In this document: one piece after another, positions 18,808-32,857 of the stretch | How the letters are laid out: each line of letters opens with the position of its first letter | Numbering within the stretch: position 1 is the first letter of the stretch | From: Rhizobium sp. Q54 | GTDB lineage: Bacteria; Pseudomonadota; Alphaproteobacteria; UBA828 | Assembly: GCA_945892755.1 (NCBI GenBank) | Contig: CAMDDO010000027.1 | Coordinates: forward strand, 1 to 38,343 | DNA: 38,343 nt | Direction: 5' to 3' | The notes under the pieces: model-generated | The model's database searches: none | Seen by the model: only the letters and a program-made list of their open reading frames with translations | What the model was told of the DNA's origin: nothing | Position numbers and translations under genes: made by a program

Positions 18808-18869
18808 CGATACAGGTCCCCTCCATGATCGTCGAACCATTAAGAGGGAGCTTCGCGTCCGGCACAATC

Positions 18870-19041
18870 ATGAAACTTGTCTCGATCGTTGCAGCCGCCG
18901 CCTTTAGGCGCGGTCACCCCGGCAACGGAACATACCGGCGCACCCGATCCCGTGCTGTTCGCCAACGCCAAGATGCTCTAGTCCATCGTCATGACGGCCC
19001 TCAACAACAATTGGGTATGGACCTTCACGCCGTCGGCGAAA
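18870..19041 (+). pseudogene. Possible decayed small exported-protein gene
   Basis: ATG 18870 begins MKLVSIVAAAAF, a short signal-peptide-like start. A shift of one base near 18906 then gives AVTPATEHTGAPDPVLFANAKML, a TAG, SIVMTALNNNWVWTFTPSAK and another TAG at 19042-19044. The composition (Trp, Asn, Phe-rich; signal-like start) reads like a protein that has lost its frame. I do not recognise the family. This 300-base region between the Lon-like gene and the class II aldolase shows nothing else convincing. Confidence 0.3.
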
Positions 19042-19111
19042 TAGCGAAAACCGGCGCGGCGACCCACGGCCGCGTGCGCCGCAATCGCTTCGCCCCGGGG
19101 GGGCGCCGGTC

Positions 19112-19891
19112 TTATTCCTTGTAGTCGGGTTGGTCGCGATCGAGCAGGCGTTTGAGCGCGGTGAAATGGGTATCGGCCGAGCTCATCCGGTTTGGATAGA
19201 GGTTCGCGATCTGCTTTGAGGCGTGTTCGACGACCGCTGGGGCGATCGGCTTGAGCTTCCGGCCCGTGCTCATGGCGAGCACCTGCGCCATGCAGGTCCG
19301 TTCGAGGAAAAAGAGATCGTCATAGGCCGCCGCGACGCTGGCGCCGCAGACCACCGCGCCGTGGTGACGCATCATGAGGATCGGCTTGCCGCCCATCGCA
19401 CGCGCCAGCCGATCGCCTTCGTCATTGTCGCTTGCGAGGCCGGTATAAGTGTCGTCATAGGCGATGCGATCGGTGTAGCGCAGCGCGTTCTGGTTGATCG
19501 GCTCGATGCGCCCGTCCTCGATCAGATTGAGCGCCAGGGTGTAGGGCATGTGCGTGTGCATCACGCAAGGCCAATCGGGATAGGCCCGATGCAGCCGGCC
19601 GTGGATGTAGAACGCCGTGTCCTCGGCGATTCCCTCGCCTTCTAGCATCCGGCCGTTTAGGTCGACGATCAGAAGGTCGCTTGCGCGCACCTCGCTCCAA
19701 TGCGTGCCGAACGGGATGAGAAGAAACCGATCGGTCGTCCCGGGCACCAGCAAAGTGAGGTGGTTATCGATGCCTTCGTTCAAGCCATGCAGAGCGGCGA
19801 GCCGATAGGCCGCGGCCAGATCGACCCGGGCTTGCCAGAGCGCATCGTTTCGCATGCCTTGCCTCGCTGCTTGCGACAGGGATCGATTCAT
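19112..19891 (-). CDS. Class II aldolase/adducin-family protein
   Basis: A 259-residue zinc aldolase fold. The metal ligands are visible: H112 and H114 in VMHTHMPYT and H176/H177 in MMRHHGAVVCG. Glu90 (GIAEDTAFYIHGRLHR) corresponds to the catalytic acid of fuculose-phosphate aldolase. NEGIDNHLTLLVPG is the phosphate/substrate loop region. Members include sugar-phosphate aldolases and decarboxylases; some are of unknown function. Its ATG overlaps the stop of the HlyD-type gene (ATGA, 19888-19891), so it is translationally coupled as the last gene of the type I secretion operon. That is an unusual partner. Confidence 0.9.
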   Translation of the reverse strand: MNRSLSQAARQGMRNDALWQARVDLAAAYRLAALHGLNEGIDNHLTLLVPGTTDRFLLIPFGTHWSEVRASDLLIVDLNGRMLEGEGIAEDTAFYIHGRLHRAYPDWPCVMHTHMPYTLALNLIEDGRIEPINQNALRYTDRIAYDDTYTGLASDNDEGDRLARAMGGKPILMMRHHGAVVCGASVAAAYDDLFFLERTCMAQVLAMSTGRKLKPIAPAVVEHASKQIANLYPNRMSSADTHFTALKRLLDRDQPDYKE

Positions 19892-21180
19892 CGCTCTCGA
19901 AAGGCCTCGCTGCCAACCGTCTTGACCGGCCGGAGCAGGAAATCAAGCACGCTCCGCTCGCCGGTGTGAATATCGAGGGTCGCCTGCATGCCGGGCGTGA
20001 TCGGCAGCTCGCCGGGCCGGCCGCCAAGATAGGTCCGGTCGGTCTCGGCCACGACGCGGAAATAGGTCGAGCCGCTTTGCGGGTCGGTCTGGCTGTCGGC
20101 CGAGATATAGGTGACCAAGCCTTCGAGCGCGCCATATTGCGAGAAATCATAGGTCGAGATCTTGACCACGGCGGGCTGGCCGACCTTGACCTGGCCGACG
20201 TCGGTCGGGCTCAGCTTGGCCTCGACCACGAGCTTGGCTTGGCTTGGCACGATCTCCATCAAGGCCTCGCCAGGCTGCGCCACCGCGCCGATCGTGTGAT
20301 AGCGCAGACTCTGCACCACGCCGTCGATCGGGCTCTTGATTTCAGTGCGGGTGACCTGGTCGGTGGTCCGGACGAGCGCCTCGCGCGCGCGCGCGATGCG
20401 ACGCTCGATATCGGCCAGCTCTTCCAGCGCGCGGCGCTTGACCGTGTTCTTTTCCTCCTCGATCCGGCTCTCGGCCTCGGCGATGGCCGACTGCGCCTTG
20501 GGCAGTTGCGCGCGAAGCGAGCCGGCCTCGCCGGAATATTTTTGCACCTCTTGCTTGAGTTGGACGTATTCGAGCTTCGGCATCAGCCCGTCCTTGACCA
20601 GATCTTCCGCCATGGCGAAGCGCTCGCGCGCGAGCGCGTGGTTGTTCTCTGCGGCGCGCAGCTCGGCCTGTACTTGGGTGACGTATTGGTGGCGCTGGCG
20701 CAGTTGGTCGCTCAGAACCGAAAGCGTGCTCTGGAGCGAGTTTAGGTGGCCGTCATAGGCCTGTCGCTCGGCCAAGACCTGATCGGGCCGCCGTGCCGCT
20801 TCAGCCTCGGGCAATTCGAGTTCGGTTTCGCTGGCCTCGGCGGCAAGCCGGGCGCGGGTCAGAATCAGGCCGTCGAGGTCGATCTGGCTCTCCTCCTGCG
20901 CCGAGCCGATGATGCCGGTGTCGAGCTGGAGCAGGACCGCGCCGGCCTTGACCGCGTCGCCCTCGTTGACGTGGATCTCCTTGATAATCCCGCCCTCGAG
21001 ATGCTGGATAACCTTGACTTGGCCCTGCGGCACGACCGCGCCTTCCGCGGTCGCGACTTTCTCGAGTTCGGAGAAATAGGCCCAGGTACCGACCGCGCAG
21101 ATCGCGACGATGACCGACCAAGCGGTCAGCCGCCAAGAGCGGAGCGGGGTGTGCGTGAGCAGGGCGTCGAGCCGGTTCAT
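19888..21180 (-). CDS. Type I secretion membrane-fusion protein (HlyD/PrtE family)
   Basis: A 430-residue periplasmic adaptor linking the ABC exporter to an outer-membrane TolC-like pore. One membrane segment lies near residues 18-35 (LTAWSVIVAICAVGTWAYF). The biotinyl-lipoyl-like half-motifs follow: VAPQGQVKVIQHLEGGI-type (VVPQGQVKVIQHLEGGIIKEI) and GDAVKAGAVLLQLD. A long coiled coil spans about 110-280. The beta-barrel domain has TEIKSPIDGVVQSL, and the C-terminus has ITPGMQATLDIHTGERSVLDFLLRPV, a signature of HlyD/PrtE proteins. Its start overlaps the end of the ABC gene by 4 bases and its end overlaps the aldolase start by 4. Confidence 0.96.
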   Translation of the reverse strand: MNRLDALLTHTPLRSWRLTAWSVIVAICAVGTWAYFSELEKVATAEGAVVPQGQVKVIQHLEGGIIKEIHVNEGDAVKAGAVLLQLDTGIIGSAQEESQIDLDGLILTRARLAAEASETELELPEAEAARRPDQVLAERQAYDGHLNSLQSTLSVLSDQLRQRHQYVTQVQAELRAAENNHALARERFAMAEDLVKDGLMPKLEYVQLKQEVQKYSGEAGSLRAQLPKAQSAIAEAESRIEEEKNTVKRRALEELADIERRIARAREALVRTTDQVTRTEIKSPIDGVVQSLRYHTIGAVAQPGEALMEIVPSQAKLVVEAKLSPTDVGQVKVGQPAVVKISTYDFSQYGALEGLVTYISADSQTDPQSGSTYFRVVAETDRTYLGGRPGELPITPGMQATLDIHTGERSVLDFLLRPVKTVGSEAFRER

Positions 21181-22934
21181 GATGCTTCTTCCGCCGGGGC
21201 CGGCCTGGGCGCACCGCCGAACAGCCGCGGCAGAATATCCTTGGCCGGGCCGCCGAGCGCGATACGGCCGCGTTCGAGCGCGATGATCGTGGCGCAGGCG
21301 CGCAGCAGGATCGGCGTATGGGTTACGACCACGATGGTCCGCTCGCGGGCGAGATCGGCCAAGGCGTCGCGCAAGGCCAACTCCGCCTGCATGTCGAGAT
21401 TGCCGGTGACCTCATCGAGCAGCAAGGCCGGTGGATCGTGGATCAGCGCGCGGGCGATCGCGATGCGCTGGCGCTGGCCGCCGGACAGGCGCGAACCGGC
21501 TTCGCCGATCTCCGTGCCATAGCCATCAGGCAGGTCGACGACGAAGGGGTGGACGCCGGCGAGCGTGGCGGCGCGGACGATCTCCTCATCGGTCGCGCTC
21601 GGCTTGGCGACCGCGATGTTGTCGCGAATCGTGCCGGCGAAAAGAACGCATTCCTGGGGCACATAGCCGATCCAGGCGGCGAGCTCGGCGCGCGAAAATT
21701 GCGCGATGTCGGCGCCGTCGATCAAGACGCGGCCGGCGCTCGGCGCATAAAGGCCCTGCATCAATTTCAGCAAGGTGGTCTTGCCGCAACCATTGCGGCC
21801 GACCACGCCAAGCATGCCGCCGGGCCGGACATCGAGCGAAATGCCGTCGATCAGCGGCGGCCGCGCCGGATCGTAGCCGAACCGAACGTTCTCCAGGGTC
21901 AACCGGCCGCTCGGTCGGTTCAGGCTTACCGCGCTCTTGGCGCGATCTTCGCCCAGCGCGAACGCCGAAGACAGGCGGTTCGCCGACTGGCGATAGCTCG
22001 CATAGGTGCGCCAGGTGCTGACCAGCTGGTTGAGTGGCGCGGTGACCCGGCTGGCCAGCATGGTCGCCGCGATCAGGGCGCCGATCGTCAATTCCTGCTC
22101 GATGATCGAAAGCGCGCCGACCGCGACCAGCGCCACGGTGACGACCATGCTCAGCATCAGGCCGAAATTGCCGAAGGTGTCGTTGCGCCCGCCACGCACC
22201 AGCGCGTGCTCGATGGTATCGGCGTGGCGGTCCTCGAAGCGCGGCTTGAAGGCGTTGCCGAGCGCGAGCGCCTTGATCGTCGTGCGACCGGCCAGCATCT
22301 CGGTGATGAACGCGTCGCGGCCGATGCCGGCGCGGCGTTCGGCGCGGGTCGCGCGCCCGAGGCTGTCGCCGGACAGCAGCGCGAGGCCGAGATAGAGTGG
22401 CAGCGCGGCAAGTAGCACATAGACCACGGGCGGCGCGATGACCCAGATCAGCGTGATGAAGATGACCGCGAACGGCAAGTCCATGACCAAGACCGCGGTC
22501 GGGCCGGAAAACACGTTGCGCACCAGCTCGGCATCCTTGTAGAGCGCCTGCCAAAAGCCGGCCGGTCGCGCTTCGAGCGTGCCAAGCGGCAGCGCCGAAA
22601 GCTTGTCGTAGAGCTTGCGGCCGAGCGCGACATCGATGCGGAGGGCGACGCGCTGCAACATGCGGGCGCGCGACTGGCGCAAGGCGAAGTCGAACGCGAT
22701 GGCGACCGCGACCCCGACCAGCAGCGCGATCAACGTGCTGATGCCGTGATAGAAGATCACGCGGTTGTAGACTTGCTGGACAAAGATCGGCACGGCGAGA
22801 GCCAGCAGGTTGACGAACAACGAAAGGAAGACGACCTCGCGAAAGGCGCCGCGCAAGGGCGCCAGCAGCGCCTTCAGCCAGGCGCGCGTTTGGGGCGTCT
22901 CGGCGTCGAGCTTGGCGAGTTCGGCATCAACCAT
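21177..22934 (-). CDS. Type I secretion ABC transporter, permease-ATPase (PrtD-like)
   Basis: A 585-residue half-transporter that exports unfolded RTX proteins across the inner membrane. Six membrane helices occupy about 30-310. The ATPase has Walker A GRNGCGKTT, the Q-loop PQECVLFAGTIRDNI, signature LSGGQRQRIAIARAL, Walker B ALLLDE, D-loop TGNLD and H-loop VVTHTP. There is no N-terminal C39 or C39-like domain, so by length it is closer to PrtD than to HlyB or LapB. The gene stands directly downstream of three RTX genes on the same strand, so these are the obvious substrates. The ATG at 22934 has GGAG about 12 bases upstream. Confidence 0.96.
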   Translation of the reverse strand: MVDAELAKLDAETPQTRAWLKALLAPLRGAFREVVFLSLFVNLLALAVPIFVQQVYNRVIFYHGISTLIALLVGVAVAIAFDFALRQSRARMLQRVALRIDVALGRKLYDKLSALPLGTLEARPAGFWQALYKDAELVRNVFSGPTAVLVMDLPFAVIFITLIWVIAPPVVYVLLAALPLYLGLALLSGDSLGRATRAERRAGIGRDAFITEMLAGRTTIKALALGNAFKPRFEDRHADTIEHALVRGGRNDTFGNFGLMLSMVVTVALVAVGALSIIEQELTIGALIAATMLASRVTAPLNQLVSTWRTYASYRQSANRLSSAFALGEDRAKSAVSLNRPSGRLTLENVRFGYDPARPPLIDGISLDVRPGGMLGVVGRNGCGKTTLLKLMQGLYAPSAGRVLIDGADIAQFSRAELAAWIGYVPQECVLFAGTIRDNIAVAKPSATDEEIVRAATLAGVHPFVVDLPDGYGTEIGEAGSRLSGGQRQRIAIARALIHDPPALLLDEVTGNLDMQAELALRDALADLARERTIVVVTHTPILLRACATIIALERGRIALGGPAKDILPRLFGGAPRPAPAEEAS

Positions 22935-22998
22935 TAGGCAAGCGCGCTCCGATCATCCGGCGGCCCCAGGCGAGGCTGTCATGCCGTGTCGCACCCGA

Positions 22999-25900
22999 TC
23001 AATAGGCCGTGCCACCACCGAGGCCGGAGACCTGGAGATCGCCCGCAACGACAGTGGCCCCGGACTGAACCGTGGCGATCACAGTATAGCCGGTGCCATT
23101 GCTGCCGTCGTCGTGATAGAGCGTGAGTGACGTCGGATCAAACACGAAATGAGCGGCTGCGCTGCCCGAGCCGCCGGCATTGGTGCCGTCATAGCCGGAT
23201 TGGCTGAAGAAGGTCGTGCCGTTGACCGCCGTGAAATCGCCGGTGCCGAAATTGAACGCCGTGTTCAGGAAATTGAAGCGGTCGGTGCCGCTCAGAAAAT
23301 CGGTGATCTGGTCGCCGGTTTGGGCGCCGACGGTGGCGTTGGTCGCCGCCGCGCCGTCTGCCTTGTCGAAATAGCGGAAGCGGTCGTTTTCGCTCGTCCC
23401 GCCGCCGGTCAGTGTGTCGACGCCGGCGCCGCCGACCAGGATATCAGAGCCGGCGCCGCCGATCAGGCTATCGGCCCCGTCGGCGCCATAGAGCAGATCC
23501 TGGCCGCCGCCGCCCGAAAGCGTCTGGCTGCCGGTGCCGCCCGCGATCAGCTCGTCATTCGAGGTGCCGCTGGTGCCCGGGACGAGCGAATAGGTTGCCA
23601 GGCCCTCGTTGAACTGGAGGAACTCCACGGGCGAGCCCGCATAGTGGTTGAGCACGCTCGCCGTGGTCCCATTCGTGAAATCGAGAATCAGGTCGGTGCC
23701 GTTGTTGCGCGCGGTGAACCCAACCGTGCCGCCGATTTCGAGGAGATCCGAGCCGCTGCTGTCGGTGATGATCTCGGTCGTGGCGCTGGTCGGAATGACC
23801 AGATAGAAGTCGTCACCCGCGCCGCCGTCCAGCGTGTCGCCGCCGCCATTGCCGTTGATCGCATCCGCGCCGAGGCCGCCGAAGATCACGTCGCTGCCGC
23901 TATTGCCGATCAGGTAATCATTGCTGTCACCGCCATTGACGGTGGTGCCGACAGCATCGGCGACCGCGATGAAGTCGTTGCCCGTGCTCCCGGTCGCCGT
24001 GCCGCCGCCGGTCTTCAGGACCAGCGATACATTGGTCAAGGTGGCCGTGGCGTCGACGAACTCGAAGAACTCGATCGTCCCGGTGGTGAAGTGACTCTGA
24101 ATGGTCACCTGTTCGGTCGAGGGATTGCCGAGGACGTGGCGGATGATCAGGTTGTTGCCCGATGCCGTATAGTCGAAGTCGATCGGCAGCGCGTCATTGC
24201 CGGACGAGCCCATCTTGAGCACGTCGGTCGGCGATGAATCGCCGCCATCGTTGATGATCACGGTCGCCGCGCCGCCGATGCCCTCGACCACGAAAATGTC
24301 GTTGCCGCCTCCGCCGACCATCACGTCGCTGCCGCCGCCGCCGATGATCAGGTTGTCGCCGGTTCCGCCGGTCAAGCTATCGGCGAAGGTCGAGCCGGCG
24401 ATCCCCTCGATGGCAACCAGGGTGTCGAAGCCGGCGAGACCGTCGCTCGCCGTGCCCGATGCGAGGTTGACCGAAACCCCCGAGGTCGAGCCGGAATAAT
24501 CGACGGTATCGAAGTCGCCGCCGCCGTCGATCAGGTCGTTGCCGGCGCCGCCGATCAAGATGTCGTTGCCGGCGAAGCCGAACAGGCTGTCATGGCCGCC
24601 GCGCCCGTCGATGAAGTCGTTGAGGTTGCTGCCGTTCAGCACCTCGTCGAGCGACGTGCCGATCAGCGTGAGTCCGCTGATGATGGTGGTCGGCGCGATG
24701 AATTGATCGTCGCCGCTCGTGGTCGAAAAGTCCGGCGGCGGAGCGAAGTAACTCGTCATGTCGGCGAGGGCGGGGTCGTAGAACGCGAGCGTCGCGTCCA
24801 ACATGCCGAACGAGCCGAAGCCGCCGAGCGGATCCGACAGATAGCCGCCATCGAGATAGGCGCCGCTCAGCGGGTCGCTGGTTAGCGTGCCGGCCGACAT
24901 CGTAGGGTCGGCGTAATTGTAGGTCGAATAGCTGAGGCTGGTGTCGCCGGGCGGGGGCGCGGGAACGCCGGTCCCGTAAGCCTCGGCGAGCGCCGGGTCG
25001 GTCAGCGGCGAGAGCCCGTCGAGGCTGAGCTGGGCCTCGTCATAGAGCGCGGCGTCGGGGTCGAGCAATCCGCCATCGCCCGGTGGCGGATTGGCGTCCT
25101 CGGCCAAAAGCCCTTCGACGATCAAGGCGGCGTCCTCGAAGAGTCCCGCCTCTTCGGCGAACATGGCTTCGTCGAGGGGAGGCGCGTCGGGCGGTGGCTC
25201 ACCGGCCAACGCCTCAACCGGCGGTTGACCGTCACTCGGAGGCCCGGATTTGCCAAGGGCGTTAGCGGACTGGTCGCCGTCCGTCGCGCCGCCATTGGCG
25301 TTGTTGGGGGCGGGACCATCGGCTTGGTCGGCCTGCGACTGCGGCACGAGGTGCTGAACGGAATCCGGCGCCGCGCTACCAAGCTGCCCGACCAGAGCCC
25401 TAACCTCGCTGGGCGCGGCGATATAGCTGGTGGCCGGCACGCTATAGGCGCTGACGACCACGGTCGTCTCGAACGCCTGGTCGAGCACGATCGTGCCGGC
25501 TAGGTTCGTGATCACCGCCGAGCCGGTCGTGGTCTGCCCGTCGGGCGTTTGTTCGGTCAGCAGGACGATTTTGTTTTGCTCGCCATCCTGCGCCGCGTAG
25601 ATCGCGACGGCGGTGCCACGCACGCCGATCGAGGCGACCGGTGTCCGGACCACCATCTGCTCGGGATTGTTGGCCGCGATTTCGCCCGAAACGAAGACGA
25701 AGACTCCTTGCAATACCGAGACCGAAGACGCGCCTTCGAGCGTGCTCGGGTCGAACACCAATTCGTCGAGCACCATGCGGGCGTTCTCGCCGACCGAGAA
25801 CGTGCTCTCGTCGACGAACACGACTTCGAGCGCCGTGTCCGCCGCGGTCTCGATGATATCGCCCTCATAGACCGGCGTGTCCTTGGTGAGGCTGACCTTG

Positions 25901-26280
25901 GTACCGTCGACACGCGTCGCGATCGCCTCGCCGCTGATCCCGGCAACGCGGCCGATCGGCTGCGCGGCGTCGCCATCGGCAGCGGCAGCGTATTGGCCGG
26001 GCGCGCGTGCACCCGCCAGCCGCATCGCCAGGGCGGCGTCGATCAGTGCGCCGCCCTCGGTAACCAGCGCCGGCGGATCGCCCTCCAAAAAGAAATTGCG
26101 GATCACGACCACCGGGTGGCCGCCCTGACCGGTCAGCACAAGATCGCCGCCAAGGCGCGCATAGTCGGCCGTGAGCAGGAATGGACCGAACGGAACGACC
26201 AATTGGACGCTGCCGGACGCGTCGAGAACGAGCGCGGGCGGGGTGCCTTGCGCGTCTAATTTGCTCGCCGCGACGCTCAT
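22999..26280 (-). CDS. FecR-domain RTX protein 3
   Basis: A 1093-residue type I secretion substrate with no Sec signal. Residues 15-110 form the N-module shared by all three paralogues (DLVLTG...VVVIRNFF...GQYAAA...PIG). A FecR-like domain (about 110-240) reads LTKDTPVYEGDIIET...VFVDESTFSVGENARMVLDE...SGEIAANNPEQMVVRTPVASIGVRGT. Residues 300-520 are Pro/Ala/Asp-rich linker. Three RTX blocks follow (about 545-665, 765-825, 905-965), with HCBP-related domains between them (about 672-750 and 833-895). The C-terminal 60 residues resemble the paralogues' secretion signal (FVFDPTSLTLYHDDG...GYTVIATVQ). Met 26280 aligns best with the paralogues; 26298 is possible. It lacks the PAAG motif found in the other two, and I see no cysteine. 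Confidence 0.92.
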   Translation of the reverse strand: MSVAASKLDAQGTPPALVLDASGSVQLVVPFGPFLLTADYARLGGDLVLTGQGGHPVVVIRNFFLEGDPPALVTEGGALIDAALAMRLAGARAPGQYAAAADGDAAQPIGRVAGISGEAIATRVDGTKVSLTKDTPVYEGDIIETAADTALEVVFVDESTFSVGENARMVLDELVFDPSTLEGASSVSVLQGVFVFVSGEIAANNPEQMVVRTPVASIGVRGTAVAIYAAQDGEQNKIVLLTEQTPDGQTTTGSAVITNLAGTIVLDQAFETTVVVSAYSVPATSYIAAPSEVRALVGQLGSAAPDSVQHLVPQSQADQADGPAPNNANGGATDGDQSANALGKSGPPSDGQPPVEALAGEPPPDAPPLDEAMFAEEAGLFEDAALIVEGLLAEDANPPPGDGGLLDPDAALYDEAQLSLDGLSPLTDPALAEAYGTGVPAPPPGDTSLSYSTYNYADPTMSAGTLTSDPLSGAYLDGGYLSDPLGGFGSFGMLDATLAFYDPALADMTSYFAPPPDFSTTSGDDQFIAPTTIISGLTLIGTSLDEVLNGSNLNDFIDGRGGHDSLFGFAGNDILIGGAGNDLIDGGGDFDTVDYSGSTSGVSVNLASGTASDGLAGFDTLVAIEGIAGSTFADSLTGGTGDNLIIGGGGSDVMVGGGGNDIFVVEGIGGAATVIINDGGDSSPTDVLKMGSSGNDALPIDFDYTASGNNLIIRHVLGNPSTEQVTIQSHFTTGTIEFFEFVDATATLTNVSLVLKTGGGTATGSTGNDFIAVADAVGTTVNGGDSNDYLIGNSGSDVIFGGLGADAINGNGGGDTLDGGAGDDFYLVIPTSATTEIITDSSGSDLLEIGGTVGFTARNNGTDLILDFTNGTTASVLNHYAGSPVEFLQFNEGLATYSLVPGTSGTSNDELIAGGTGSQTLSGGGGQDLLYGADGADSLIGGAGSDILVGGAGVDTLTGGGTSENDRFRYFDKADGAAATNATVGAQTGDQITDFLSGTDRFNFLNTAFNFGTGDFTAVNGTTFFSQSGYDGTNAGGSGSAAAHFVFDPTSLTLYHDDGSNGTGYTVIATVQSGATVVAGDLQVSGLGGGTAY

Positions 26281-26351
26281 GCGGGCATTGCCTCGCATTG
26301 CGCGATCGAGACTAGTGGCTCAGTTGAACGGTGCATGGCTATGAAAGGACG

Positions 26352-26373
26352 TTTCCCGGCTCGGCTCGGGAAA
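26352..26373. promoter_or_regulatory. Inverted repeat upstream of RTX gene 3
   Basis: TTTCCCG (26352-26358) and CGGGAAA (26367-26373) form a perfect 7-base inverted repeat with an 8-base centre, 72-93 bases before ATG 26280. It could be an operator or a leader hairpin. The nearby CtrA-type box is at 26390-26404. Confidence 0.35.
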
Positions 26374-26389
26374 TCCTGAACCATGGTTG

Positions 26390-26404
26390 TTAAGTCGCCG
26401 TTAA
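26390..26404 (-). promoter_or_regulatory. CtrA binding box, perfect TTAA-N7-TTAA
   Basis: TTAA-GTCGCCG-TTAA is an exact match to the canonical CtrA half-site pair with 7-base spacing. On the minus strand it reads CTTAACGGCGACTTAAC and also supplies the trailing C of the consensus. It lies about 110 bases before RTX gene 3. In a genome this G+C-rich, two TTAA tetramers at this spacing are uncommon by chance. Confidence 0.55.
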
Positions 26405-26437
26405 GACACGGGCGACAGTGCACCGATGGCGATTAGG

Positions 26438-26465
26438 AAAAAACGAGGACCGGGCGCCACGCCCG
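26438..26465 (-). terminator. Possible terminator after RTX gene 2
   Basis: On the minus strand CGGGCG-TGG-CGCCCG (26451-26465) forms a tight hairpin 27 bases past the stop at 26492. A run of six T (26438-26443 as A on the plus strand) follows after 7 bases. The gap between stem and T-run is longer than ideal. Confidence 0.4.
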
Positions 26466-26491
26466 CGCCCTTGTGACATGGCCTACCCGCG

Positions 26492-29071
26492 TCAGGCGCT
26501 GTTGCTGATCTGGATGTCCGACGCGCTCACTGCGTCGCCCTGAACTTCGGCAATCACGGTGTAACCCGGCGTCGTGACATTGCCGTCGAAATACAGCGTC
26601 TTTGACACGATATCGAAGATGAAATGCGGCTGGTCGGTGTCCTCGGTAATGCCGCTGCCGTCATAGTTCGACACGGCTGAGAACAGGGTGGCGCCGGTCG
26701 CAGTCTCGATGTCAGCCAGGGTGCCGGTCGTGCCAAAGGCGAAGCCGAATTCGGTGTTTTGGAACACGAATTTGTCGACGCCGCTTGCAAAATCAGAAAC
26801 CAGCGTGGCATCGCCTTCGAACACTTCGTCGTTCGCGACGTCGATGCCATCGGCCCGGCTTTGGAAGAAGAAGGCGTCCGCGCCCCCGCCGCCGGTCAGC
26901 ACGTTGATGCCGGTGCCGCCGGCCAACAGATCGGCGTCGGCGCCGCCATCGAGCTCGTCATCGCCCGCGCCGCCGAACAATCGGTCGAGCCCGTCATCGC
27001 CGCTTGCCACGTCATTGCCCGCGCCCGCGAACAGCGTGTCATCGCCATCATTGCCGACCAAGATGTCCTCGCCGCCCGAACCGAAGACGGTGTCATTGCC
27101 GGCCAGAGCATCGATCTCGTCATTGCCGAGGCCGCCGAACAGCACGTCGCCCGATTCGCTGGGTTGACCATCGCCTTCAGCGGCGTCGGCGTTCACATAG
27201 AAAAAGGCGAAATCGTTGAATGCAGCGTTTGGTCCGCCGTTGATATCCGTGTCGATGAAATTATAGCCGAAGCTCAGCACATCGCCGGCCTCGACCGTGA
27301 TCTCGAACAGAAGCACGGAGCCGCCAGTGGCAAGGTCGGTCGTGTTCGGATTGCCATCGTCGGCCAGCGCGGCGAGCGCGCCCGGAGCCAGCCCCGGCAG
27401 CAGTGCTTCGATCTCGGCGATGGTCAGGTCGATCTGCAAACCTGAATCGCCGATCAAGACGGTCACGCCATCCAGCTTTAACTGGCCATTGCCCTGGATC
27501 GGATCGACGCCATTGAAATTGCCAACGAAGGTCACGTCCGAACCGGTCGGGATGGTAAATCCGTCGTCGAGGAACGACGACTGCTGGAACGGCTCGATCA
27601 ATTCACCATTCAGGAACACACTATCGAGCAGCAGCGGTGAGTCGATGACGAAATCGCCCTCGTCGATCGCGCCCCAAGCAAGCGTATAGGTACCGGCCTG
27701 CTGGAACATGAAGGTGCCGCCGAGCGGGCCCGAGGTATGCAGCACGCCGCCAATCAACACGTCGTTCTGATCGACCGATTGCGCAAGTTTGAACAGCCCG
27801 CCCGGTAGAATGAAATCCGGCGGCGGCTCTGTTCCGACCTCAGGCGGCACGATCGCGAGGGGTTGGGGCAGCGGCGGAACATCATCGTGGTCCGAACCGC
27901 CGCCGCCGAAACCGGCGCCAAAATCGAACGTCAGCGCGGCTGGTGGAGGCACCACGCCAAACGGCCCACCCGCGAGCGGATCGGCGTTGGTGACCTGAAT
28001 CACTTCTTGGGGCGCGTCGCCGAAATCACCGGCGGCAGGCGCGATCTCCGACAAGGCCGCCGCTGTCTCGAAGGCCTTCTCGCCGTCTTCGCTGAGAAAA
28101 TCGGAGTCCAGATATCTGAGCGAATCCGGGATGGCGCCTTGAAGGCGCCGGATCAAGAACGCGATGTCCTCGGGCAGGGCGTAGAACGTGTCGGACGGCG
28201 TCGCGAAAACGCTATCGGGCGCGGTCGCCTCATTGGGCTCGTCGAGCACAACCGAACCGCCATCGGTTGAGACCTTGACCGAGCCCGTGGATTCCTGCCC
28301 ATCTTCGGTCTGCTCGGGCAGCAGAATGATCAAATTCTGCTCGCTCTCCTCGGCGGCCTGCACCGCGACCGCCGTGCCACGAATACCCATGGTCGCGACT
28401 GGCGTCTTGACCACCATCTGATCGGGATTGTTCTCGGCGATGCCGCCCGAGACAAAAACGAAGACGCCTTCGATCACAGAGAAGCTCGATGAGCCCTCGA
28501 GCGTGCCCCGATCATAGACGAACTCGTCGAGCACCATGCGCGCGCTTTCGCCGACCGCGAACGTGCTTTCGTCGACGAACACAACCTTGAGCGCGGTGCC
28601 TTCGGCAGTCTCGATCACGTCGCCCTGAAAGACTGGAACGTCTTTGGCGAGCGTCAGTTTCGTGCCGTCGAGTCGCGTCGCTGTTGCGTCTCCTGTGAGC
28701 TCGGCGACTTTGCCGATCGGCTCGGACGAAGAGGCCGAATCATCCGCCGCGGCATATTGGCCGGGGGTCGGTGAGCCCGCGAGACGCGCGGCGAGGGCGC
28801 CCTCGATCCGAGCGCCGTGCTCGGTCTCGAGTCGGGGCGGCTCCGCCATCGCGAAGAAATCGCGCACGACGACGACGGCCTCATGGTCCGCGCCGCTGAG
28901 GACGAGGTCGCCCGCCGCGCGGCCGAACTCGGCGCCGAGCAGGAAATTCCCGCCCGGCACGGTCAGCGTGCCGCCTTCGGTCGCCTGCAAGATCAGCGGC
29001 GCCTTGGCGGCGTGATCAGCGCGGCTCAATGACGGCGCATCGTCCGTCGCCGACGAAAATTCCAGAGACAT
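26492..29071 (-). CDS. FecR-domain RTX protein 2
   Basis: An 859-residue type I secretion substrate. Residues 25-120 are the shared N-module, and 120-250 the FecR-like domain (LAKDVPVFQGDVIET...VFVDESTFAVGESARMVLDE...MGIRGT). IAPAAG occupies 343-348, just beyond the end of the conserved region (to about 320). Residues 420-630 are a beta-rich domain found in neither paralogue (TFMFQQAGTYTLAWGAIDEGDF...FNDFAFFYVNAD). RTX repeats run 640-730, and the C-terminal signal region is 740-859 (HFIFDIVSKTLYFDGNVTTPGYTVIAEVQ). ATG 29071 is preferred because AGGTGAGGA lies just before it and residue numbering then aligns exactly with RTX protein 1; GTG 29083 is inside that ribosome site. No cysteine is seen. 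Confidence 0.93.
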   Translation of the reverse strand: MSLEFSSATDDAPSLSRADHAAKAPLILQATEGGTLTVPGGNFLLGAEFGRAAGDLVLSGADHEAVVVVRDFFAMAEPPRLETEHGARIEGALAARLAGSPTPGQYAAADDSASSSEPIGKVAELTGDATATRLDGTKLTLAKDVPVFQGDVIETAEGTALKVVFVDESTFAVGESARMVLDEFVYDRGTLEGSSSFSVIEGVFVFVSGGIAENNPDQMVVKTPVATMGIRGTAVAVQAAEESEQNLIILLPEQTEDGQESTGSVKVSTDGGSVVLDEPNEATAPDSVFATPSDTFYALPEDIAFLIRRLQGAIPDSLRYLDSDFLSEDGEKAFETAAALSEIAPAAGDFGDAPQEVIQVTNADPLAGGPFGVVPPPAALTFDFGAGFGGGGSDHDDVPPLPQPLAIVPPEVGTEPPPDFILPGGLFKLAQSVDQNDVLIGGVLHTSGPLGGTFMFQQAGTYTLAWGAIDEGDFVIDSPLLLDSVFLNGELIEPFQQSSFLDDGFTIPTGSDVTFVGNFNGVDPIQGNGQLKLDGVTVLIGDSGLQIDLTIAEIEALLPGLAPGALAALADDGNPNTTDLATGGSVLLFEITVEAGDVLSFGYNFIDTDINGGPNAAFNDFAFFYVNADAAEGDGQPSESGDVLFGGLGNDEIDALAGNDTVFGSGGEDILVGNDGDDTLFAGAGNDVASGDDGLDRLFGGAGDDELDGGADADLLAGGTGINVLTGGGGADAFFFQSRADGIDVANDEVFEGDATLVSDFASGVDKFVFQNTEFGFAFGTTGTLADIETATGATLFSAVSNYDGSGITEDTDQPHFIFDIVSKTLYFDGNVTTPGYTVIAEVQGDAVSASDIQISNSA

Positions 29072-29152
29072 GGGCGTCCTCACCTTTTCCGGCCCCTGCG
29101 CGGGGGCCAGTTATCGTTCCGCCAATGGCCGCAATTCTACCATCGTCGCTTG

Positions 29153-29168
29153 GTTAGGACTTGGTAAA
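29153..29168 (-). promoter_or_regulatory. Degenerate CtrA-like box before RTX gene 2
   Basis: GTTAGGACTTGGTAAA reads TTTACCAAGTCCTAAC on the minus strand: TTTA-N7-CTAAC, 6 of 8 core bases of TTAA-N7-TTAA. Nearly the same 16-mer (TTTACCAAATCTTTAC) stands before RTX gene 1. It lies 82-97 bases upstream of ATG 29071. Confidence 0.35.
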
Positions 29169-29211
29169 AATAACAAACAAAATGAGAACCTCGGGGTATT
29201 TCGAAACGGGC

Positions 29212-29230
29212 CGGAGGCAGCCGGCCTCCG
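29212..29230 (-). terminator. Hairpin after RTX gene 1
   Basis: CGGAGGC (29212-29218) and GCCTCCG (29224-29230) form a 7-bp stem with a 5-base loop, 25 bases past the stop of RTX gene 1. On the minus strand it is followed by GCCCGTTTCG, so the T-tract is weak. It may attenuate or process the message between the two RTX genes. Confidence 0.4.
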
Positions 29231-29254
29231 ATGAAATCCGCGCCGCCTCGGTGC

Positions 29255-32200
29255 CTAGGTCGGCGCGTTGAAGTCGCTCAACACGATGTCCGCGGACGAT
29301 AGGTTAGCGCCGTTCGGCACTTGCGCGATCACGGTGTAACCGGCGGTCGCCGAATTGTCATCGTAGTAAAGCGTGCTTCCCACGTCGTCGAAGACAAAAT
29401 GGGGCTGGCCTGGCGCGGCCGGGATGCCGGTGCCGTCGTAATTGCTCTGAACAAAAAAGAGCGTCGTGTTTAGATCGATTTCGAGCGTCGCCAGCGATCC
29501 CTCGAACGTGCCGAAGCCGAAGTCGAAGCCGGAGATCGCGAAAAAGTCCTGGCCCGAGGTGTAGTCGAATATCTGGTCGCGCGGATCGTTGAAGGCACCG
29601 TTCGCGTTGGTCACGACGCCATGGCTTGGTCCGCCATAGATGAAGGCATCGGCACCGATACCGCCGGTCATTTCGTCGATGCCCTCTTCACCCATGATGA
29701 AGTCGTCACCGGCATCACCGGACAATACATCATTCGCGCCGGAGCCGAGCAGAATGTCGTTGCCGCCATCGCCGATCAGGGTGCTCGAGACATTGAAAGT
29801 CGCGACGACAAAGTCATCGCCGCCGCCACCAGTTTGGTTGGTTGCAAGATTGAGCGTCCGCTGACCGAAGCCATAGTCGACCTCGAAGAGTTCGATCGTG
29901 TTCCCGGCAAAGTGATTGAGAATCGTGGCGGAACCGAGGCTCTCGAAATCAAATACCAAATTGTCGGCGACGCGAAACGCACTTGCGCCAAAACCAGTGA
30001 ACACCAAGCGATCCGCCGCGCCGTCGCTATCCACGATGCCGTCGTCTGAACCGTCCAGATCGCTGATATCGAAGCTGTAGGTTTCGTCGCCCTGGGTATC
30101 GGACAAAATGTCGAAGCCGCTGCCGCCGCTTAGCGTATCATTGCCGCCTTCGCCGAACAGGTTGTCATCGCCCGAACTGCCGAGCAGCTGATCATCGCCC
30201 AGATTGCCGAACACGGTGTCATTACCGCCGAGCGCGTCGATCACGTCGGACCCGGCCGTGCCGAACAGCAGGTCATTGCCGCCGGTCGCGACCTCGTTCT
30301 GGTCGGTCACCTGAACGAAATAGTCGCGGAAGGTCGAGGCGGCCTGGGTATCCGTCACCGTCACCCGCACCTTGTAGAGATCGTCATCGCCGGGATCGGT
30401 GAATTCGAAATCCGGCGGGTTGGCGAAGCTGAGCGCGCCGGTCGCGCTATCGACCGTGAAGAACGTATTGTCGAAGCTGGCATTGGGGTTCGCGCCGATC
30501 GAAAAGGTCAGCGTCTGGTTCTCGGGGTCGGTCGCGGTGATCGCGATGAACGTGCCGGCCGTGTTCTCGGCGACGAAGATCGGATTGCCCGCCGTCGGGC
30601 CCGCGAGTTGCGTGATCAACGGCGCTTCGTTGAGGTTCGTTACCTGGAAGATGAATTGGCCGGAGGTCGCATCGGGTGTGCCGCCGACCGCAAGGTCATC
30701 CGCTGTGACCTGCACCTGGTAGAGGGCCTGGGTTTCGAAATCGAGTACGAGGCCGGGCTTCAAGCGCAGCTCGGTGCCGATGATCTCGAACGACGAGGTA
30801 TCCGGCCCGACCAGCGCAAGCGCGTTGGCGCCGAAGGCATCATCGGTCACCACGATGTCGGCGACCTTGAGGCCGAGCAGTATGTCGGTGTTCTCCGCGA
30901 TCGATGCTGTCGTGTTCGCCAAGCCGACCACCGTCGGTGGGTTGTTGATCTGCGGTGGCACGACAACGGACGGTGGGCCGACAGGCGCGGGCGGGAGGCC
31001 ATTGTCGCCGGTCGAGCCGCCGGTATCGGGCTCGGTTTGCGTCGCCGGAGGCGCCGGCGGAGCCGCGAGCGCGATCGGTGTGATCGGTGTGATCGGCGGC
31101 TGAGGAGGGCCGGGCTCGAACGTCGGCGCGAAACCCGATGGCTCGAGAACGCTGGCCTCCGTCACATTGACCGTCGCATCCGGGATCGAGGGGTTTCCCT
31201 CCGCCGGGGCCTCGGCTTGATCGCCGGGAGAGGCCGAGCCTGCCGCTGGCGCGATGGTTGGTATCGCGTCCAGCGCGAATCCAGCTTCGCCGAGCGCTCC
31301 GGCGTCGGCGCCGCGCCCGCCAGCGCCGCCTTCGGGCGCCAGGAATTCGAGCGAATCCGGCAGGGCACCTTTGAGGCGGCGCAACAGAAAGGCGATCTCT
31401 TCGGGTGACGAGAGATAGGGGTCGGACGGCAGCGAGAAAATGCTGTCGACCATGGTGGTCTCATAGGCTTCATCGAGCACGACAGAGCCGGCCTGGTTGC
31501 TCACTTTGACGGCGCCGACCGTCTCCTGGCCGTCGGAGGCTTTCTCGGGCAAGAGGACGATCCTGTTGTCTTCGCCCTCCTGCGCCGCCTGCACCGCGCC
31601 CGCCGTGCCGCGTACGCCGATCAGGCCGACCGGCGTGCGAATCGTCATCTGTTCCGGGTTGTACTGCGCGATTTCGCCCGAGACGAAAACGAAGAGACCT
31701 TGGAGCACCGAGACGGCCGATGAGCCCTTGAGCGAACTGGGGTCGAACACCAGCTCATCGAGCACCATGCGGCCATTGTCGCCGACCGAGAGCGTGCTCT
31801 CGTCAACAAAGACGAGCTTGAGCGCCGCCTCGTCTCCGGTCTCGACGACATCGCCCTGATAGACCGGCATGTCCTTGGCGAGGGTTTCCCGTGTGCCGTC
31901 GGCATGAATCACCTCGGTCTCGCCAACGATGTCGATGACCTTGCCGATCGGCTCGGCGACGGCGCCGTCACCGGCCGCGGCGTATTGGCCCGGCGCCGGG
32001 GCGCCGGCCAAACGCGCGGCGAGGGCCCCCGAGACCTCGGCGCCTGCTTCGGTCCGCAAGGTTGGCGCGTGCTCGAGCGCGAAGAAGTCGCGGATGACGA
32101 CGACATGTCGGTCGGCGCCGCCACTCAGCACGAGGTCGGCCCCAACCCGGTCATAGTCCGCGATAAGAAGGAAGGCGCCGCCGGGGACGATCAGCTCGCC

Positions 32201-32302
32201 GCCGAGCGTGGCGTCAAGAATGGTTGGCGCCGTGGCTTGCTCGGCGGGGTCTACGCCGTCGAGGACCCGCCCCGCCGATCCCAATGTGAGCGTGAATGAC
32301 AT
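29255..32302 (-). CDS. FecR-domain RTX protein 1 with cadherin-like repeats
   Basis: A 1015-residue type I secretion substrate. The shared N-module is at 30-120, and the FecR-like domain at 120-250 (LAKDMPVYQGDVVETG...VFVDESTLSVGDNGRMVLDE...IGVRGT). IAPAAG occupies 350-355, and a Pro-rich linker runs to 450. Two cadherin-like repeats follow (about 455-558, 560-668; NNPPTV...SIAENTD and NEAPLIT...VAENTAG, each with the DFE/D-x-D calcium motifs). RTX blocks are at 673-730 and 825-890 with an HCBP-related domain between (about 755-820). The C-terminal signal region is 900-1015 (HFVFDDVGSTLYYDDN...GYTVIAQV). Met 32302 is chosen by exact alignment with protein 2; no clear Shine-Dalgarno precedes it, and 32350 is the alternative. 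No cysteine is seen. Confidence 0.93.
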   Translation of the reverse strand: MSFTLTLGSAGRVLDGVDPAEQATAPTILDATLGGELIVPGGAFLLIADYDRVGADLVLSGGADRHVVVIRDFFALEHAPTLRTEAGAEVSGALAARLAGAPAPGQYAAAGDGAVAEPIGKVIDIVGETEVIHADGTRETLAKDMPVYQGDVVETGDEAALKLVFVDESTLSVGDNGRMVLDELVFDPSSLKGSSAVSVLQGLFVFVSGEIAQYNPEQMTIRTPVGLIGVRGTAGAVQAAQEGEDNRIVLLPEKASDGQETVGAVKVSNQAGSVVLDEAYETTMVDSIFSLPSDPYLSSPEEIAFLLRRLKGALPDSLEFLAPEGGAGGRGADAGALGEAGFALDAIPTIAPAAGSASPGDQAEAPAEGNPSIPDATVNVTEASVLEPSGFAPTFEPGPPQPPITPITPIALAAPPAPPATQTEPDTGGSTGDNGLPPAPVGPPSVVVPPQINNPPTVVGLANTTASIAENTDILLGLKVADIVVTDDAFGANALALVGPDTSSFEIIGTELRLKPGLVLDFETQALYQVQVTADDLAVGGTPDATSGQFIFQVTNLNEAPLITQLAGPTAGNPIFVAENTAGTFIAITATDPENQTLTFSIGANPNASFDNTFFTVDSATGALSFANPPDFEFTDPGDDDLYKVRVTVTDTQAASTFRDYFVQVTDQNEVATGGNDLLFGTAGSDVIDALGGNDTVFGNLGDDQLLGSSGDDNLFGEGGNDTLSGGSGFDILSDTQGDETYSFDISDLDGSDDGIVDSDGAADRLVFTGFGASAFRVADNLVFDFESLGSATILNHFAGNTIELFEVDYGFGQRTLNLATNQTGGGGDDFVVATFNVSSTLIGDGGNDILLGSGANDVLSGDAGDDFIMGEEGIDEMTGGIGADAFIYGGPSHGVVTNANGAFNDPRDQIFDYTSGQDFFAISGFDFGFGTFEGSLATLEIDLNTTLFFVQSNYDGTGIPAAPGQPHFVFDDVGSTLYYDDNSATAGYTVIAQVPNGANLSSADIVLSDFNAPT

Positions 32303-32382
32303 TTGCGCACCATCGAGCGGTACTTGCCCATCTTGGGGCTTAAGTCGCATTGATTCGGGGGCAATCCTAGCACCGACCGAGT

Positions 32383-32491: not shown

Positions 32492-32857
32492 TCAGGCGAG
32501 ATAGCGTCGTACCACTTCCAGGAAGTGGGAGATCGAGATCGGCTTGGTGATATAGGCATCGCAGCCGGCTTCGCGAACCCGCTCCTCATCACCGCGGAGG
32601 GCCAAGGCGGTCACCGCGATGACAGGGATCTTCTTGAGTTCCGCGTCCGCCTTGAGCCAGCGCGTCACGTCGAGCCCAGAGACGTCCGGCAACTGGATAT
32701 CCATGAGAATGACATCGGGTCGATGTAACCGAACCAATTCGAGCACGCTGTTGCCGTCCTTGGTTTGGAGGGTCGCGATGCCAGATGCCTCAAGGAGGTC
32801 GCGCATCAACTTGAGGTTGAGCGCGTTGTCTTCGACGATCAGCGCTGTCTTGACCAT
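32492..32857 (-). CDS. divK: Cell-cycle response regulator DivK
   Basis: A 121-residue single-domain receiver that matches DivK of Caulobacter almost along its whole length: [22 protein letters not shown], phospho-acceptor D53 in [21 protein letters not shown], and [40 protein letters not shown]. DivK controls the DivJ/PleC/DivL-CckA pathway and thereby the phosphorylation of CtrA at the division poles. In Caulobacter it precedes pleD; here no pleD follows, and the next gene downstream is an RTX gene with CtrA-like boxes. The upstream 190-base leader contains a perfect 10-base inverted repeat. Confidence 0.95.

What the first reader, a model, noticed from the sequence alone, without database searches (positions are those of the whole stretch)
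21177..32302. Three tandem FecR-headed RTX proteins with their own type I exporter
Three large proteins share an N-terminal module of about 100 residues, then a FecR-like domain, a variable middle, RTX repeats and a common C-terminal signal. FecR domains are best known as periplasmic parts of anti-sigma regulators. Here they sit near the N-terminus of exported, Sec-signal-free, cysteine-free proteins next to a dedicated ABC/HlyD pair. The middle differs per copy: cadherin-like repeats (protein 1), a private beta domain (protein 2), extra RTX/HCBP blocks (protein 3). It looks like one display scaffold with exchangeable functional parts.
Basis: partly seen in the sequence, partly recalled or inferred. 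Interest (0 to 1): 0.75.

Follow-up and report, generated by a model that had tools for sequence, protein, structure and literature searches.

The report
Retained adhesins with FecR-fold periplasmic anchors
Three neighbouring genes make calcium-binding surface proteins whose 'FecR' head most likely acts as a stopper that holds them in the outer membrane, in two of them ahead of a predicted protease cut site that would let the cell drop its grip when an internal signal falls.

Summary
Observation confirmed: three tandem cysteine-free RTX proteins (22999-32350, minus strand) share an N-terminal module, a FecR domain and a C-terminal region, directly upstream of an ABC/HlyD pair (19888-22934). 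The reading changes. The FecR head is probably not displayed: it is the periplasmic retention plug of a LapA-type adhesin. A profile of 51 relatives finds one significant solved structure, the adhesin anchoring domain 5ix9 (E 3.8e-12); the model superposes on it and, better, on anti-sigma FecR domains. After the plug, proteins 1 and 2, and a truncated fourth copy elsewhere in the genome, carry PAAG, a proven LapG cleavage tetrapeptide; protein 3 does not. The genome encodes one LapG-like protease beside a DvhD-like receptor (E 2e-48 to 9rc0). In 289 class genomes the N-module co-occurs with DvhD-like receptors (24/40 versus 18/249). Against: 12 of 25 family proteins in DvhD-positive genomes lack the site, LapA-profile similarity is shared by other FecR proteins, and the window exporter lacks the C39-like domain. 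New variant of a known kind; cleavage and retention were not tested.

The parts
29255..32350 (-). Adhesin 1 (P0001, 1031 aa; second possible start 32302): N-module, FecR plug, PAAG, Pro-rich linker, cadherin-like domains, RTX, C-terminal signal
31970..32302 (-). N-module of adhesin 1 (BapA prefix-like in a minority of relatives)
31433..31960 (-). FecR-fold retention domain of adhesin 1 as modelled (Pfam match 31574-31852)
31238..31249 (-). PAAG, predicted LapG-type cleavage site of adhesin 1 (residues 368-371)
   Evidence: consensus from PMC13090378; PAAG proven by mutation in V. cholerae FrhA, PMC6890996
30344..30580 (-). best-scoring cadherin-like stretch of adhesin 1
26492..29083 (-). Adhesin 2 (P0002, 863 aa; ATG at 29071)
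28742..29071 (-). N-module of adhesin 2
28349..28621 (-). FecR match of adhesin 2
28028..28039 (-). PAAG, predicted LapG-type cleavage site of adhesin 2 (residues 349-352)
27164..27826 (-). Middle domain of adhesin 2; remote relatives in 3 other genomes; fold unresolved
22999..26298 (-). Adhesin 3 (P0003, 1099 aa; ATG also at 26280); extra RTX blocks; no [T/A/P]AAG anywhere
25981..26280 (-). N-module of adhesin 3
25576..25857 (-). FecR match of adhesin 3
21177..22934 (-). Type I secretion ABC transporter, 585 aa, best matched by the LssB model but only from model position 130, so without the N-terminal C39-like domain
19888..21180 (-). HlyD-type periplasmic adaptor, overlaps the ABC gene by 4 bases

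Best explanation
The three proteins are LapA-type retained RTX adhesins. They leave the cell C-terminus first through the ABC/HlyD pair and a TolC-like channel encoded elsewhere. The N-terminal part (N-module plus FecR-fold domain) folds in the periplasm and is too large to follow, so it plugs the channel while a disordered, proline-rich linker threads it and the cadherin, beta and RTX parts stand outside. Proteins 1 and 2 carry a LapG-type site (PAAG) between plug and linker; the genome's LapG-like protease would cut there and free them when the DvhD-like receptor stops restraining it at low c-di-GMP. Protein 3 has no such site and would stay anchored. Shown here: domains, gene order, fold similarity, site, presence of protease and receptor genes, co-occurrence. 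Inferred: export direction, plugging, cleavage, c-di-GMP control, adhesion itself, and the different fate of protein 3.
For: FecR, RTX and shared C-terminus in all three, next to ABC/HlyD. Profile of 51 family members hits 5ix9 ('Antifreeze protein'; 'Cell surface anchoring domain' in the fold library) at E 3.8e-12; the four other hits up to E 5 are at 0.38 or worse and none is an anti-sigma FecR structure. AlphaFold2 model: N-module ~22-105 and FecR part ~121-310 with block means of 87-98 pLDDT, short helices 300-308 and 316-321, then mostly under 50. 5ix9 superposes at 0.8 A over 62 columns (TMt 0.78; Foldseek E 2.7e-3) and with Z 7.8 over 75 of 76 residues. PAAG after the plug in proteins 1 and 2 and in the fourth paralog. 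[T/A/P]AAG in 16 of 47 family members in the window 60-210 aa after FecR against a shuffle mean of 4.8, maximum 11 of 1000; without the own genome 13 of 43 against 4.4, maximum 10. One PF06035 protease in the genome, matched to LapG-family structures 4u65 (2.3e-18) and 4fgo (1.1e-16), with the GDCEDYA, H and D stretches aligned. Divergent neighbour P0008: weak dCache, PAS, HD; best PDB match 9rc0 at E 2e-48; catalytic HD reads MN, where the paper reports SQ in DvhD. N-module genomes with a DvhD-like protein: 24 of 40 versus 18 of 249; DvhD-like within 1.5 kb of PF06035 in 30 of 38 entered. Site present in 13 of 25 family proteins of DvhD-positive genomes versus 2 of 21; without the own genome 10 of 21 versus 2 of 21, p 0.015. 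In G087 an N-module protein, the LapG-like and the DvhD-like gene lie within 9.3 kb.
Against: Protein 3 has no [T/A/P]AAG; 12 of 25 family proteins in DvhD-positive genomes have none in the window, including the one encoded near the protease pair in G087. NF033682 (LapA retention) also matches two other FecR proteins of this genome (5e-5, 7.5e-8; a third at 0.07), so that likeness is a property of the fold, and it is below the curated cut-off (50) in all three window proteins at 23.5-27.0 bits. Anti-sigma FecR domains superpose better than 5ix9 (Z 15-16 against 7.8). Protease and receptor lie on another contig. The window ABC lacks the C39-like domain, and a transporter over the LssB cut-off exists elsewhere (C32, 949.5 bits). 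16 of 40 N-module genomes had no DvhD-like hit at 225 bits, and of 28 genomes behind named loci only 6 had one at E 1e-20. Co-occurrence tests ignore phylogeny. P0008's dCache match is below cut-off.
Confidence: 0.62

Rival explanations
1. Permanent plug: the FecR head retains the proteins in the outer membrane channel, but they are not released by the LapG-like protease; PAAG is incidental in alanine- and proline-rich linkers.
For: Protein 3 and 12 of 25 family proteins in DvhD-positive genomes (protein 3 among them) lack the site; 16 of 40 N-module genomes have no strong DvhD-like hit and 19 of 40 no PF06035 match.
Against: [T/A/P]AAG exceeds all 1000 shuffles (16 of 47, maximum 11) and is commoner in DvhD-positive genomes (13 of 25 versus 2 of 21); same IAPAAG in proteins 1, 2 and the paralog.
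Confidence: 0.2
2. Fully secreted proteins: the FecR and N-modules travel out and act as extracellular structural or binding domains of an exchangeable scaffold.
For: A C-terminal signal and exporter need no retention; the proteins are small (863-1099 aa) for retained adhesins; Foldseek's best matches are anti-sigma FecR domains, so the fold alone does not say plug.
Against: Profile link to an adhesin anchoring domain, position before a mostly disordered stretch, LapG-type site in two of three, protease/receptor pair and its co-occurrence.
Confidence: 0.13
3. Sigma-type signalling: the FecR domain works as in FecR/PupR and relays a surface state to a sigma factor.
For: Best structural superposition is with anti-sigma FecR/PupR domains.
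Against: The seven window proteins scanned with Pfam include no TonB-dependent receptor, sigma factor or anti-sigma helical domain (the other window ORFs were not scanned); no transmembrane segment is visible by eye in the three proteins.
Confidence: 0.03

Closest known systems
LapA/LapG/LapD system of Pseudomonas fluorescens and relatives (V. cholerae FrhA/CraA)
   Same: N-terminal retention-type domain, LapG tetrapeptide in two of three, RTX and type I export, LapG-like protease in the genome
   Different: Plug is a longer FecR domain preceded by an N-module; proteins are short; three adhesins in one locus; no LapD found (but the search's control was silent); window ABC lacks the C39-like domain
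DvhA/DvhG/DvhD system of Desulfovibrio vulgaris (PMC13090378)
   Same: LapG-family protease with a receptor of PAS and degenerate HD-GYP domains; P0008 is closest in PDB to 9rc0, taken here as DvhD
   Different: Receptor and protease are on another contig than the adhesins and are divergently transcribed; Pfam shows no protease domain in the adhesins (DvhA and DVU1545 have serralysin-like ones); relatives are alphaproteobacterial
Cell surface anchoring domain 5ix9 (Marinomonas primoryensis adhesin; organism recalled)
   Same: Profile and fold match to the first half of the FecR domain
   Different: The 5ix9 model in the fold library has 76 residues; here the domain is the full FecR fold
BapA-type adhesins (BapA prefix, NF033677/PF22783)
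   Same: N-module matches these models in 21 and 13 of 51 family members
   Different: Of the window proteins only protein 3 is listed, at E 0.0035 and below cut-off
FecR/PupR anti-sigma regulators
   Same: Fold of the FecR domain
   Different: No transmembrane or sigma-binding part seen; part of an RTX export substrate

Membership tests
LapA-type retained RTX adhesin | N-terminal folded retention domain related to LapA/MpIBP | tested here: met
   caution: NF033682 is below cut-off in the window proteins and other FecR proteins match it too
LapA-type retained RTX adhesin | [T/A/P]AAG site after the retention domain | tested here: inconclusive
   met in proteins 1 and 2, not met in protein 3; cleavage untested
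LapA-type retained RTX adhesin | RTX repeats, shared C-terminal end, type I exporter beside it | tested here: met
LapA-type retained RTX adhesin | Exporter ABC with N-terminal C39-like domain (typical of RTX exporters, PMC8277102, passages; for LapB recalled) | tested here: not met
   window ABC matches LssB only from model position 130; a full-length one exists on C32
LapA-type retained RTX adhesin | Retention at the outer membrane shown | not testable with these tools
   needs experiment
LapG (BTLCP) protease | Peptidase_C93 over cut-off with C-H-D residues | tested here: met
   (residue roles from PMC13090378)
DvhD receptor | PAS plus HD-GYP with lost catalytic HD | tested here: met
   compared with the paper's passages
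DvhD receptor | Periplasmic dCache domain | tested here: inconclusive
   dCache_1 21.4 bits, below cut-off 45
LapD | LapD_MoxY_N domain in the genome | tested here: inconclusive
   0 matches but no control genome rang
BapA prefix-bearing adhesin | BapA prefix-like domain | tested here: inconclusive
   21 of 51 (NF033677) and 13 of 51 (PF22783) family members at E<=0.01; window proteins weak or absent
FecR anti-sigma regulator | Transmembrane segment and N-terminal sigma-binding region | tested here: inconclusive
   no such Pfam match in proteins 1-3 and none visible by eye; no dedicated predictor run

The most novel reading that the evidence does not exclude
A wide alphaproteobacterial family now labelled 'FecR domain-containing' or 'RTX' proteins are retained adhesins whose full FecR domain is the periplasmic plug, so that anti-sigma FecR domains and adhesin retention modules are one fold put to two uses. 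In part of the class they are governed by a DvhG/DvhD-type c-di-GMP switch acting in trans, and one operon can mix releasable adhesins (1 and 2) with a non-releasable one (3).
Probability: 0.45. Interest if true: 0.68.

Novelty: new variant of a known kind. Interest (0 to 1): 0.56.

Why it matters
It would give a function to FecR domains in exported proteins, tie a common but unexplained alphaproteobacterial architecture to regulated attachment and dispersal, and suggest that the DvhDG switch, described in detail in sulfate reducers, controls short adhesins in another class. It yields direct tests: proteins 1 and 2 cut, protein 3 not.

Tried and rejected
Middle domain of protein 2: 4 of 385 genomes (own included) matched; the 4-row alignment gave a model of mean pLDDT 38.5, so no fold search was made and its fold is open. 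NF033682 as proof of LapA kinship was weakened by its own control. The LapD search told nothing because its control was silent. The AAAG at residues 124-127 of protein 1 was set aside: it lies between N-module and FecR, and proteins 2 and 3 lack it there. The plasmid search with protein 3 gave only fragments in 6 records. The promoter scan found nothing; the terminator-like sites on the minus strand do not fall between the three genes or before the ABC gene. The N-module's superposition on RTX block V ends and lymphostatin (Z about 5) is too weak to use. The alignment used unsuitable coordinates and was not used.

Limits of the counts: the strict motif [IL][AEDSG][T/A/P]AAG (12 of 47 versus 0.25) was made after seeing the sequences, and the 60-210 window was chosen; only the tetrapeptide came from print. 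5 of 52 members were dropped for short reading frames (L015, L021, L023, L049, L051), and L050 (site present) from the genome comparison because its genome is not held. A5 holds 51 of the 52 members; L064, cut at its start, was left out. For most genomes only the best N-module locus was read, so other copies may differ. DvhD-positive was set at 225 bits by hand (42 of 289; 58 at E 1e-20), plus G297 and G300 (split frame); for the neighbourhood count 38 of 42 were entered, and the other four (G082, G100, G163, G197) have no PF06035 match, so 30 of 42. Genomes are related and the Fisher tests take no account of that.

Full report
What is there. Three minus-strand genes, 29255-32350, 26492-29083 and 22999-26298, encode proteins of 1031, 863 and 1099 residues, followed by an ABC gene (21177-22934) and a HlyD gene (19888-21180) that overlaps it by four bases. 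All three hit Pfam FecR and RTX above cut-off; protein 1 also has a cadherin match. N-module plus FecR of proteins 2 and 3 are 58% identical to protein 1, and the C-terminal ends align. None has a cysteine. No terminator-like site lies between them on their strand.

The N-module is a family, not a private part. A profile of it alone (A3) finds matches in 40 of 289 genomes of the class and a fourth copy in the own genome (C3). Of the 30 loci fetched there (L013-L042, the first being the window itself), 26 carry N-module and FecR together through model position 230, two more reach into FecR and two end at the contig edge. Of 31 named loci found with N-module plus FecR, 26 have this head, and 11 of the 26 have ABC and HlyD genes within the fetched flanks, many of which are cut by contig ends; one more has HlyD only. 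Three of these ABC frames are short (569-582 aa) like the window's; eight are 732-757 aa and align to it only from residue 163-177 on, which fits an extra N-terminal domain. The module matches BapA prefix models in 21 of 51 (NF033677) and 13 of 51 (PF22783) family members.

What the FecR domain is. All 51 members of A5 match FecR and 50 of 51 match the LapA retention model at E<=0.01. As a control I scanned three other FecR proteins of this genome: two match that model too (5e-5, 7.5e-8) and one weakly (0.07). So the LapA-profile match marks the fold and not the job. More telling, the profile of the 51 searched against all PDB sequences returns 5ix9 at E 3.8e-12; the other four hits up to E 5 are at 0.38 or worse and none is an anti-sigma FecR structure. 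5ix9 is titled 'Cell surface anchoring domain' in the fold library; that it belongs to the Marinomonas primoryensis adhesin is recalled and fits PMC13090378's remark on that adhesin (section 7). The AlphaFold2 model of residues 17-396 of protein 1 has two confident domains, helices at 300-308 and 316-321 and then a mostly unstructured tail. Foldseek finds anti-sigma FecR domains (E 5e-6 to 3e-5) and, with E 2.7e-3, 5ix9 (0.8 A, TMt 0.78); VIA-align gives Z 15-16 and 7.8 (75 of 76 residues). Retention modules and FecR domains thus look like versions of one fold, with the adhesin kind closer in sequence. That a retention domain is too large to pass the channel once folded is stated in PMC12077191 (passages).

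The cleavage site. Print gives the LapG site as a targeting helix, a DP motif and [T/A/P]AAG (PMC13090378, passages, section 7); PAAG itself was proven by mutation in V. cholerae FrhA (PMC6890996, passages). Protein 1 has IAPAAG at 366-371 and protein 2 at 347-352; the C3 paralog has the same. Neither window site has the DP motif. Protein 3 has no [T/A/P]AAG. Over 47 members with a full window, 16 carry the tetrapeptide against a shuffle mean of 4.8, maximum 11 in 1000; without the own genome 13 of 43 against 4.4, maximum 10. Several have a common form such as LDPTAEELASIATAAG (L078). Proteins from genomes with a DvhD-like receptor have it in 13 of 25 cases, others in 2 of 21 (p 0.004; genomes 10 of 19 versus 2 of 20, p 0.006); without the own genome 10 of 21 versus 2 of 21, p 0.015. 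The twelve without it in DvhD-positive genomes are real counter-evidence or use another sequence.

Protease and receptor. The genome has one Peptidase_C93 match (C33), P0009, which aligns to structures 4u65 and 4fgo (recalled as LapG) through the GDCEDYA, H and D stretches. Divergently next to it lies P0008: two hydrophobic segments by eye, weak dCache, PAS and HD domains. Its best PDB matches are 9rc0 (E 2e-48) and 9rbz (1.6e-37), 'HD domain/sensory box protein'; I take these as the DvhD structures of PMC13090378 because chain lengths and sequence details fit (the paper's own accession codes were not checked). The HD pair reads MN in P0008 and SQ in 9rc0 as aligned, matching the paper's SQ for DvhD, which does not hydrolyse c-di-GMP (passages).

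Co-occurrence. In the same 289 genomes, DvhD-like proteins at 225 bits or more occur in 42: in 24 of 40 N-module genomes and 18 of 249 others (odds ratio 19, Fisher 1e-13); Peptidase_C93 in 21 of 40 and 58 of 249 (p 4e-4); DvhD-like and Peptidase_C93 together in 36 of 42. The two genes are within 1.5 kb in 30 of 42. By taxonomic family, 18 of the 26 families with an N-module genome have one that is also DvhD-positive. In G087 an N-module protein, a CHASE2-type cyclase (by eye), the LapG-like and the DvhD-like gene follow each other within 9.3 kb (L138). In a second set, the genomes of 28 named loci, 6 of 28 had a DvhD-like hit, four of them at the same coordinates as genomes of the first set, so the link holds for part of the family only.

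How it probably works. C-terminus-first export by the neighbouring ABC/HlyD pair and one of two TolC-like loci (C40, C84); folding of the head in the periplasm; anchorage; release of proteins 1 and 2 by the C33 protease when its receptor lets go. Steps after gene content are inference from Lap and Dvh work. Another exporter, a full LssB-type transporter on C32 with no adhesin in the 19 kb fetched around it, could serve instead; gene order favours the window pair.

Literature. In the listings of five searches joining FecR with RTX, type I secretion, retention or LapG no title or abstract start describes FecR domains as adhesin retention plugs; most of these texts were not opened. LapG and FecR occur together in one held paper, PMC6963963 (listing only), a Pectobacterium genome comparison. 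PMC13090378 (sections 7 and 12 read, passages elsewhere) has a class-level figure of DvhDG distribution that I could not see (legend only), so the presence of DvhDG in Alphaproteobacteria may already be in print. Paracoccus BapA, an alphaproteobacterial type I adhesin, is described without LapG or FecR in PMC5588039, and there c-di-GMP acts negatively on biofilm (passages).

Verdict. Observation right; the most likely meaning is a regulated, retained adhesin set, a new variant of the Lap/Dvh kind, with the FecR head inside rather than outside.

Noticed in passing
L010:4080-5861 (G000 C3:30079-31860): Fourth copy of the N-module/FecR/PAAG head; its frame ends at 593 aa with no RTX match, and no exporter gene was seen by eye in the 18 kb fetched, so it looks like a remnant.
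   Followed up: partly
L164:5315-9011 (G000 C32): A full-length LssB/LapB-type ABC and HlyD pair with no adhesin in the fetched stretch, next to two trypsin-like protease genes (by eye).
   Followed up: partly
L011:1998-5229, L012:4028-9094, L138:2-5465: FecR-bearing genes beside or one gene away from CHASE2-type cyclase or phosphatase genes (by eye); in L012 a TolC-family gene follows.
   Followed up: no
L052, L053, L054 (after FecR): Some relatives have, by eye, a long helix-rich charged stretch instead of a LapG-type site, which recalls the coiled-coil of SiiE (recalled) and may be another way of retention or control.
   Followed up: no
L010:6899-8593: A second kind of RTX protein (564 aa) about 1 kb from the remnant copy, without FecR.
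   Followed up: no
window 32492-32857: Single receiver-domain response regulator gene (by eye) just upstream of adhesin 1 on the same strand.
   Followed up: no
window 16366-19891: Downstream of HlyD lie a class II aldolase-family gene that overlaps it by four bases and a LonB-like protease gene; no link to the adhesins was found.
   Followed up: partly
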